The notes below the pieces were generated by a model. It was not told where the DNA came from. It did not search any database and was given only the letters and a program-made list of their open reading frames with translations. This document shows, piece after piece, positions 1 to 1,475 of a stretch of 64,000 bases of DNA. The number at the start of each line of letters is the position of its first letter. The stretch's first letter is position 1. This stretch comes from Synechococcus sp. 8F6 (lineage in GTDB: Bacteria > Cyanobacteriota > Cyanobacteriia > PCC-6307 > Cyanobiaceae): positions 1 to 64,000 of the forward strand of contig NZ_NQKZ01000002.1 in NCBI RefSeq assembly GCF_002252665.1, written 5' to 3'. The translations under genes and the position numbers were made by a program.

Positions 1-38
1 GAGTTGCCAATTCAGCGATCAGGGTTCATAGTGGATGA

Positions 39-1149
39 ATGGAGCTGCGCAATCAGCTTCCAAGCAGTCATCTCTTGACTGCTCCTGTTCACCCTCCAGA
101 AAGGGACACAGGACCTCCTGAGTTACACCACTCGGAGGGGCGCTACCCGGGTACCAATGATCTGGTCCAACCCGCGCTATTTTAAAGGGGGACAGAAATC
201 AGAAGCACTTGTTTCGCTGATCGATTTCCTACCCACGGTCGCCAATCTCTACGGAGCCACAGAAGACAGCATTACCAATTATGACCTCAGGGGCGTTGAT
301 TACTCACCAATCATCAAGCGTGCCTCAAGGAATTCCTCACTAGATCATGAGAAGCTCGACGTCCAGTCGTCGATTCTCTACACGTGGGACGACATCTATG
401 CCGGACAGGACCCTCGCGGATCGATTCCTGAGGGCTCATGGGATCATGGATTGCTTCCAGGACCCAACCGCCTGCAGGCGGTGCGCACGAAAGACTTCAA
501 ATACGCACGCTATTACTCAGGAGACAAAAGCTATACACCCGAGAATTGGCAGGAAGAACTGTATGACCTCCGACCAAAAGGGGGTGACTACTACCCTAAT
601 GTAGACCCAATTACAGGTCAGCTCAACCCGTTCAAGGCAGCGCCACTCGAACTCCGCAGTCTTGACCCCAAAGCAGAAGCGCTCCGCGTCTTGCAAGGCG
701 AAAAGCCCATAGCAACGAAGAAACAGAGGAAAGCATATATCGAAATGTCAAAACTACTCGACCAGCTTATCGATGACAAGCTTCAACCTCTTTTGCCTCA
801 ACCATCCAAAGCCCCCACTTTGTACCGCTATCGTGGAGGGTCATCGCAGGCATCCGCTTACAGCAAGGGGGATCCGATCGTACGCCTGATTCCCGCTGGA
901 AATGGCACACAGGATCTAGAAGTTGCTTTCAATACACGCGCAGGCCAGACCTACAACGTTGTTTCCATTGATCAGGAGATCGTGAACGGGGCCGTGACAA
1001 TCACGGACAACGCAACGCTGGTTCCGAGCATTATCGGTACCAATGGAACTGTGTACCAGTACATCCGAGGCCTCCCGTCAGATCTGGATCTCAGCAATTT
1101 TGCCGTGGAATGGATCGGCGGCTATGTGCCGATGGAGACCCTTGCATGA
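39..1149 (+). pseudogene. C-terminal part of a sulfatase, frameshifted
   Basis: The frame open from 157 to 1149 encodes the C-terminal region of a large alkaline-phosphatase-superfamily sulfatase. The motif GATRVPMIWSNP (from about 139) and SLIDFLPTVANL are typical of the region after the catalytic core. The RVP motif starts upstream of the first ATG (157) in this frame, and the preceding family-like stretch GPPELHHSEG (about 111-140) is in another frame open from ATG 39. One extra base near 138-145 would explain this. The nucleophile Cys/Ser region and metal ligands of the N-terminal half are not visible in bases 1-110, which carry stops in all frames. The tail after residue 220 resembles a beta-rich accessory domain. 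GC is lower than in the core genes downstream. It could be a decaying gene or an assembly indel; sulfatase identity is fairly sure, loss of function is inferred. Confidence 0.7.
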
Positions 1150-1475
1150 ATGGCGCGAGTGAACTCAAGCGGTTCATTGAACACAAAAAAAAGGATCCAG
1201 CACTTGCCGCACAACTTGCCCAATTTGGCGTGGACCAATGGGGGGAGGCACATTTGCCTCTCGACATCGACATCCACAAGTTGATTGAGCTAGCCCGGCT
1301 TCACGGTTTTCACTTTGACGAGAGTGATGTGTTTAAGAGTCAATGCGAACACCTGCAATCGTTTTGGATGTTCGAGATGGAGAACTCATTTGTTGCTCGG
1401 CGCTACATGGCCCGCATCCAGCTACACATCGACAAAGGCAATACAAGATTGTCAGAGATAGACTACTATAATTAA
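1146..1475 (+). CDS. Nif11-like domain small protein
   Basis: A 109-residue protein whose ATG overlaps the sulfatase stop codon as ATGA, which suggests translational coupling. The N-terminal half matches the Nif11 pattern: a first helix ELKRFIEHKKKDPALAAQL (residues about 5-23), then a helix KLIELARLHGFHFDESDV (about 41-58), as in LKAFL..V..DP.L...L..A.....ELA...GF.F. The C-terminal half (about 59-109) is helical and rich in aromatic residues, unlike the double-Gly leader plus short Cys core of nitrile-hydratase/Nif11 RiPP precursors; there is no GG leader end and only one Cys. A longer start at 1110 would add 12 residues inside the sulfatase and looks less likely. Nif11 domains are common in marine cyanobacteria; the role of this kind, standing next to a sulfatase, is unknown. 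Confidence 0.7.
   Translation: MNGASELKRFIEHKKKDPALAAQLAQFGVDQWGEAHLPLDIDIHKLIELARLHGFHFDESDVFKSQCEHLQSFWMFEMENSFVARRYMARIQLHIDKGNTRLSEIDYYN

What the first reader, a model, noticed from the sequence alone, without database searches (positions are those of the whole stretch)
1146..1475. Nif11-like protein translationally coupled to a sulfatase
ATGA overlap with the sulfatase gene, and a 109-residue Nif11-like domain without a double-Gly leader end or Cys-rich core. This suggests a non-precursor Nif11 partner, maybe an interaction or maturation factor for the sulfatase.
Basis: partly seen in the sequence, partly recalled or inferred. Interest (0 to 1): 0.5.

Follow-up and report, generated by a model that had tools for sequence, protein, structure and literature searches.

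The report
Nif11-like partner of a picocyanobacterial sulfatase
A small helical protein related to peptide-antibiotic leader sequences is encoded right beside one particular sulfatase-like enzyme in the picocyanobacteria that have it, probably as its dedicated partner, although in this genome a transposon has already cut the enzyme gene in two.

Summary
The ORF 1146-1475 is real: 109 aa, ATGA overlap, Nif11 above Pfam's cut-off but below NCBI's leader-peptide cut-off. The window's sulfatase is not intact: only its last ~330 residues remain, cut by the end of an IS256-type element (window 1-147), and its catalytic half was not found elsewhere in this assembly. The pairing is genuine: 14 of 400 sampled family genomes, own included, have a strong match, and all 13 others have it next to a sulfatase-like gene with the catalytic stretch. 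Two pairs are convergent and two spaced, and flanks fall into several groups. A conserved WGxxHxPLDID stretch and a long helix distinguish the protein from ordinary Nif11 leaders. I read it as a dedicated chaperone-like or activating partner, not a peptide precursor. Against this: G139, G510 and G513 have related sulfatases with no Nif11-like gene nearby. The paired sulfatases lack the usual proline (C-x-S/A/V-x-R). FGE is found in 9 of 14 pair genomes but not in two near-complete ones, so an obligate FGE-helper role is not supported. No biochemical role was tested.

The parts
1..147 (+). end of an IS256/mutator-type insertion sequence that truncates the sulfatase gene (its transposase would lie beyond the contig end)
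   Evidence: 4 other copies in the genome at 95-99%; one copy next to a transposase with PF00872 430 bits
148..1149 (+). C-terminal remnant of a sulfatase-like gene; catalytic domain missing (open frame called from ATG 157)
   Evidence: matches residues 432-766 of the G064 sulfatase at 76%; N-terminal half not found in own genome
1146..1149 (+). ATGA stop/start overlap
   Evidence: sequence; the same -4 overlap in 10 of 14 family members including this one
1146..1475 (+). Nif11-like partner protein, 109 aa
   Evidence: PF07862 26.8 bits over 23.8; 13 relatives at E 5.9e-41 or better in 400 genomes, all beside a sulfatase-like gene
1239..1271 (+). conserved stretch, residues 32-42 (W-G-E-A-H-L-P-L-D-I-D)
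   Evidence: 6 of 12 columns (32-43) invariant in 14 sequences; partly gapped (9 residues net) against the solved Nif11 chain 9zn4
1320..1421 (+). long conserved helix, residues 59-92, with the single invariant Cys67
   Evidence: 11 of 34 columns invariant; predicted helix 59-95

Best explanation
The ORF encodes a Nif11-derived, non-precursor protein that is the dedicated partner of one subfamily of sulfatase-like enzymes in the picocyanobacterial family to which this genome belongs (family named by inference from two named relatives). Shown: the two genes stay adjacent across genomes, orientations and several flanking contexts, and both are under purifying selection. Inferred: the protein binds the sulfatase, most likely as a small helical chaperone or activating subunit. 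The conserved face of its long helix and the WGxxHxPLDID stretch would hold the newly made enzyme, whose catalytic loop is a non-standard C-x-S/A/V-x-R, until it is matured, folded or exported. In this window the partnership has been broken: an IS256-type element cut the sulfatase gene, its catalytic half is not in the assembly, and the Nif11-like gene is a still-intact orphan.
For: 14 of 400 family genomes have a strong match (E at most 5.9e-41). All 13 besides the window's have a sulfatase-like gene with the catalytic stretch next door; the one of G590 is cut by its contig end. Ten of 14 have the -4 ATGA overlap, two are co-directional with 36 and 92 base gaps, and two are convergent. A nucleotide comparison of flanks groups G000 with G064 and seven others together. 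G590 (one flank held), G069, G165 and G630 match none, and G106 has under 1 kb of flank. Pairwise distances of the two proteins correlate (Pearson 0.88, 78 pairs of 13 genomes), which shared ancestry alone could also produce. In the sample of 201, 6 of 7 genomes with this sulfatase (own remnant included) have the Nif11-like gene adjacent. Invariant columns: 6 of 12 in residues 32-43, 11 of 34 in the long helix, 3 of 31 before, 2 of 15 between, 1 of 17 in the tail. Over residues 62-92, a range I chose, the helix shows one conserved face (moment 7.6, shuffle mean 3.7, p 0.023).
Against: No interaction was measured or modelled. The structural model is only moderate (pLDDT 75.9, pTM 0.60) and finds no significant fold match. 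Sulfatases without the partner exist: G139 (78% complete, RTX repeats) has no Nif11-like gene within 13 kb, and the more distant G510 and G513 proteins (34-35% identity) have none within 13-14 kb. Seven of 14 pairs share one chromosomal location, so independent events are few. Six of 14 members carry a Gly-Gly in the tail, which a precursor reading could use.
Confidence: 0.6

Rival explanations
1. Export pilot: the Nif11-like protein acts in trans as an uncleaved leader that docks the sulfatase on an NHLM/type I-like ABC exporter.
For: Nif11-derived peptides are often adjacent to such exporters (PMC2887384, passages read). NHLM HlyD (TIGR03794) is over cut-off in 12 of 14 pair genomes and 20 of 51 others that I picked. 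One relative sulfatase carries RTX repeats.
Against: The pair genome G004 (100% complete, 20 contigs) has no TIGR03794 match at E up to 1e-10. I noticed no exporter in the ORF lists of the loci, which I did not annotate systematically. Larger genomes and shared descent may explain the enrichment.
Confidence: 0.14
2. Inhibitor or immunity-type partner: the Nif11-like protein keeps the sulfatase inactive inside the cell.
For: Small protein without an evident signal peptide (by eye), next to the enzyme in all 14 genomes and kept there in convergent pairs.
Against: Nothing tested here points to inhibition specifically, and nothing excludes it. Three related sulfatases lack such a neighbour.
Confidence: 0.1
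3. Peptide (RiPP) precursor with the sulfatase-like enzyme as tailoring enzyme.
For: Nif11 domain; a less conserved short tail ending in Y-Y in 12 of 14 members; a Gly-Gly about 11 residues before the end in 6 of 14, all of one location group.
Against: Below the curated leader cut-off (23.4 against 32.3 bits). No Gly-Gly in the window or seven others, and where present it lacks the usual ELxxEELxxVAGG context. One Cys in the window protein. Conservation is strongest past the leader region.
Confidence: 0.07
4. Mere genetic linkage: the two genes travel together on an acquired segment without working together.
For: Remnant and gene have G+C 0.52 and 0.47 against 0.677 for the window; the pair is poorer in G+C than its flanks in 7 of 12 other genomes computed.
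Against: The pair is richer than its flanks in the other 5 of 12. Adjacency is retained in two convergent and two spaced arrangements and in several flanking contexts.
Confidence: 0.08

Closest known systems
Nif11 domain proteins (PF07862)
   Same: N-terminal part matches above the gathering score; a solved Nif11 chain, 9zn4, aligns at E 0.0003
   Different: 9 to 13 extra residues around the conserved WGxxHxPLDID stretch plus a long C-terminal helix with many invariant residues
Nif11-like leader peptide family RiPP precursors (TIGR03798, including prochlorosins)
   Same: distant sequence relationship (23.4 bits); Gly-Gly in the tail of 6 of 14 relatives
   Different: below the curated cut-off, no Gly-Gly in the window's protein, no Cys-rich core, beside a sulfatase-like gene in 14 of 14
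Type I sulfatases, choline-sulfatase side (PF00884; TIGR03417)
   Same: scanned partners match PF00884, and the C, R, K, H, D and DHG positions (active-site roles recalled) are invariant in 14 aligned sequences
   Different: far below the choline-sulfatase cut-off (highest 114.5 against 433); C-x-S/A/V-x-R instead of C-x-P-x-R; extra C-terminal domain; the window copy lacks the catalytic part
Formylglycine-generating enzyme (PF03781)
   Different: the Nif11-like protein has no PF03781 match

Membership tests
Nif11 domain (PF07862) | score above Pfam gathering cut-off | tested here: met
   26.8 against 23.8 bits, profile 5-47 of 48
Nif11-like leader peptide (TIGR03798) | score above curated cut-off | tested here: not met
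   23.4 against 32.3 bits
Nif11-like leader peptide (TIGR03798) | Gly-Gly cleavage motif followed by a core | tested here: not met
   window protein has none; 6 of 14 relatives have a Gly-Gly in the tail, without the ELxxEELxxVAGG context and with only about 11 residues after it
Nif11-like leader peptide (TIGR03798) | modification enzyme or exporter nearby | tested here: inconclusive
   neighbouring ORFs listed but not all annotated; none noticed
Type I sulfatase (PF00884), proteins related to the window remnant | sulfatase domain over cut-off | tested here: met
   8 of 8 scanned, 72-144 bits against 25: six pair partners, the second G106 protein and G139; the seven partners of G546, G598, G604, G622, G630, G639 and G654 were only aligned
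Type I sulfatase (PF00884), window copy | catalytic domain with Cys/FGly motif | tested here: not met
   only the C-terminal ~330 residues remain
Type I sulfatase | C-x-P-x-R motif | tested here: not met
   13 of 13 pair partners and G139 have S, A or V at the proline position
Sulfatase maturation enzyme (FGE) | PF03781 match in the Nif11-like protein | tested here: not met
   not among the Pfam matches at E up to 10
Physical partner of the sulfatase | direct binding | not testable with these tools
   no complex prediction or experiment available

The most novel reading that the evidence does not exclude
A Nif11 leader-type domain has been recruited as a trans-acting maturation factor for sulfatases that lost the FGE recognition proline. 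It would bind the C-S-S-A-R loop and either present it to FGE or, in genomes where no FGE was found such as G064 and G165, make the enzyme active by another route.
Probability: 0.12. Interest if true: 0.75.

Novelty: new variant of a known kind. Interest (0 to 1): 0.42.

Why it matters
[quoted passage not shown] A conserved Nif11-derived protein tied to one enzyme would give that domain a second, testable role. The partner's proline-less motif, together with no detectable FGE in two near-complete genomes, makes sulfatase maturation in these bacteria a concrete question.

Tried and rejected
FGE as obligate co-factor: not supported, since FGE-type matches (E at most 1e-40) are missing in G000, G064, G165, G630 (77% complete) and G639 (80%) of 14 pair genomes. 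The FGE active-site Cys pair (motif recalled) was read only in G106, G069 and G004. The hits of G000, G064, G165 and G139 that I read look like EgtB (recalled) or other SUMF1-type proteins (one search read some loci on the wrong strand, mended). The 51 comparison genomes were handles I picked from earlier listings, not a random draw, and include many small genomes.

Radical-SAM sulfatase maturase TIGR03942: 0 of 7 genomes searched over cut-off (six of the 14 pair genomes plus G139); 145-166-bit matches in 6 of 7.

Mobile vector: no Nif11-like relative in viral contigs, phages or plasmids. Plasmid sulfatases are distant, 26-29% identical in 8 records; no Nif11-like gene is annotated within 2.5 kb of the Acaryochloris one.

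Structure: Foldseek E at least 5.8, and VIA Z at most 2.9 for ten chains: nothing usable. The sulfatase model is poor (pLDDT 62), so no fold search was made with it.

Rows set aside: weak matches (14 rows at E 0.002-0.09 in 12 genomes; three rows at 1e-4 to 2e-4) were treated as generic Nif11 or chance. Of these only the G048 locus was looked at again (21.6 bits).

Link to type IV pili: minor-pilin-like genes (by eye; two of the proteins scanned pass the N_methyl cut-off) lie next to the pair in G004, G546, G598, G604, G622 and G654, but these share one chromosomal location, so I do not build on it.

Change made on checking: the peptide-precursor rival was raised from 0.05 to 0.07 after I saw the Gly-Gly in six relatives.

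Full report
What is in the window. The frame at 1146-1475 encodes 109 residues and starts inside the stop of the frame before it, ATGA. Pfam assigns the Nif11 domain at 26.8 bits (cut-off 23.8). NCBI's leader-peptide model scores it below cut-off, 23.4 against 32.3. Against the nearest relative the gene has dN/dS 0.12 over 109 codons and the remnant before it 0.09 over 330 codons, so both have been selected as protein; this reflects mostly the time before the truncation.

The sulfatase here is broken. The window starts at the first base of contig C22. Bases 1 to about 147 occur four more times in the genome at 95-99% identity. One copy adjoins a transposase with PF00872 at 430 bits, so this is the end of an IS256/mutator-type element. 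The sulfatase of genome G064 matches this genome only at window 139-1143, its residues 432-766. The catalytic half is therefore lost or unassembled. One search finds no sulfatase domain above cut-off in what is left.

The pair elsewhere. A single-sequence search of 201 family genomes gave 6 strong matches including the own one, plus 14 weak rows that I set aside. The sulfatase remnant as query gave 7 genomes, 6 of them the same. A profile of seven sequences found 14 of 400 family genomes and, in 386 genomes sampled from the phylum, four strong matches, own included and all in the same family, plus three weak ones. A scan of named bacterial genomes found two relatives, in a Synechococcaceae MAG (83%) and in Synechococcus sp. 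CS-1330 (50%). From contig length and position these appear to be the G590 and G106 entries. In all 13 other genomes the Nif11-like gene lies next to a sulfatase-like gene of 690-837 aa carrying the catalytic stretch; the 690-aa one, G590, is cut by its contig end. Ten of 14 have the -4 overlap, G165 and G106 have gaps of 36 and 92 bases, and G069 and G630 are tail-to-tail. In a nucleotide comparison of up to 6 kb, flanks are shared between G000 and G064 and among seven others. G590 (one flank held), G069, G165 and G630 share none, and G106 has under 1 kb to compare. Adjacency therefore survives relocation and inversion.

Exceptions. G139, a 78% complete genome, has a related sulfatase with RTX repeats and no Nif11-like gene in 13 kb. 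In the phylum sample, 6 of 386 genomes have a sulfatase match at E 1e-30. Four of these are pair genomes; G510 and G513 (34-35% identity) have no Nif11-like gene in 13-14 kb. The Nif11-like gene thus seems to need the sulfatase neighbour more than the reverse.

Anatomy of the small protein. The alignment of 14 has 23 invariant columns: 6 of 12 in residues 32-43, 11 of 34 in residues 59-92, 3 of 31 before, 2 of 15 between, and 1 of 17 in the tail. Against the solved Nif11 chain 9zn4 the 32-43 stretch is partly gapped. The model shows helices 3-16, 18-25, 43-52 and 59-95 at pLDDT 75.9. Conservation along residues 62-92 is one-sided (p 0.023). I read this as a binding surface (inference). Six of 14 members, all from the shared-location group, have a Gly-Gly about 11 residues before the end, and 12 of 14 end in Y-Y before 0-2 last residues. 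I do not read this as a leader-core junction because the window's and seven other members lack the Gly-Gly and its usual context is missing.

Anatomy of the partner. Eight of eight scanned proteins match PF00884: six pair partners, the second G106 protein and G139. The seven of them given to NCBIfam score far below the choline-sulfatase cut-off. The catalytic stretch reads CSSAR, CSSSR, CTAAR or CSVAR in 13 of 13 partners and in G139. More distant relatives have CAPSR or CSPSR; a plasmid relative in Acaryochloris has CTSSR. Lack of the proline is probably derived, but it is not strictly tied to the Nif11-like gene. The C-x-P-x-R rule was seen in passages of PMC9063841.

Maturation and export. 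FGE-type matches occur in 9 of 14 pair genomes and 16 of 51 others (Fisher p 0.033). NHLM HlyD is over cut-off in 12 of 14 and 20 of 51 (p 0.0025). The 51 were picked by me, and neither test is corrected for descent or genome size. Each has near-complete counterexamples: G064 and G165 for FGE, G004 for HlyD. Neither route is obligatory as far as these searches can see.

Literature. A search for Nif11 with sulfatase gave three papers. The one I opened, PMC11928666, mentions the two separately (passages); the other two I did not open. PMC10783134 passages describe Nif11 precursors in marine Synechococcus, with no occurrence of 'sulfatase'. Sulfatase passages of PMC5839243 and PMC7029141 concern other bacteria or other enzymes. 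Searches listed no paper whose title or abstract start describes this pair; I did not read all the papers listed.

Verdict. A conserved two-gene unit, which I did not find described in these searches. The Nif11-like half most probably works as a dedicated protein partner. Binding, maturation and export are all unproven. The window holds a decaying copy.

Noticed in passing
window 1-147: End of an IS256/mutator-type insertion sequence with four further copies in the genome; the contig breaks inside it.
   Followed up: yes
L039 4351-7029: A related sulfatase (892 aa) with a duplicated C-terminal domain and RTX calcium-binding repeats, suggesting type I secretion of this enzyme group.
   Followed up: partly
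L036 1404-6017: Two tandem sulfatase-like genes before the Nif11-like gene; the outer one runs to the contig end and lacks the catalytic Cys region.
   Followed up: partly
L035 1409-4334; L103 8444-11436; L104 6617-12207: Minor-pilin-like genes (some with the N-methylation motif, two with sub-threshold VWA-like matches) beside the pair in one conserved chromosomal location.
   Followed up: partly
L041 2070-2525: The Nif11-like frame runs on for about 42 residues past the usual end.
   Followed up: no
window 157-1475: Sulfatase remnant and Nif11-like gene have G+C 0.52 and 0.47 while the window as a whole has 0.677, suggesting acquisition from another lineage.
   Followed up: partly
L104 6211-6540 and five other loci (L103, L105, L106, L108, L109): Gly-Gly near the C-terminus of the Nif11-like protein in six relatives only, absent from the window's.
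   Followed up: partly
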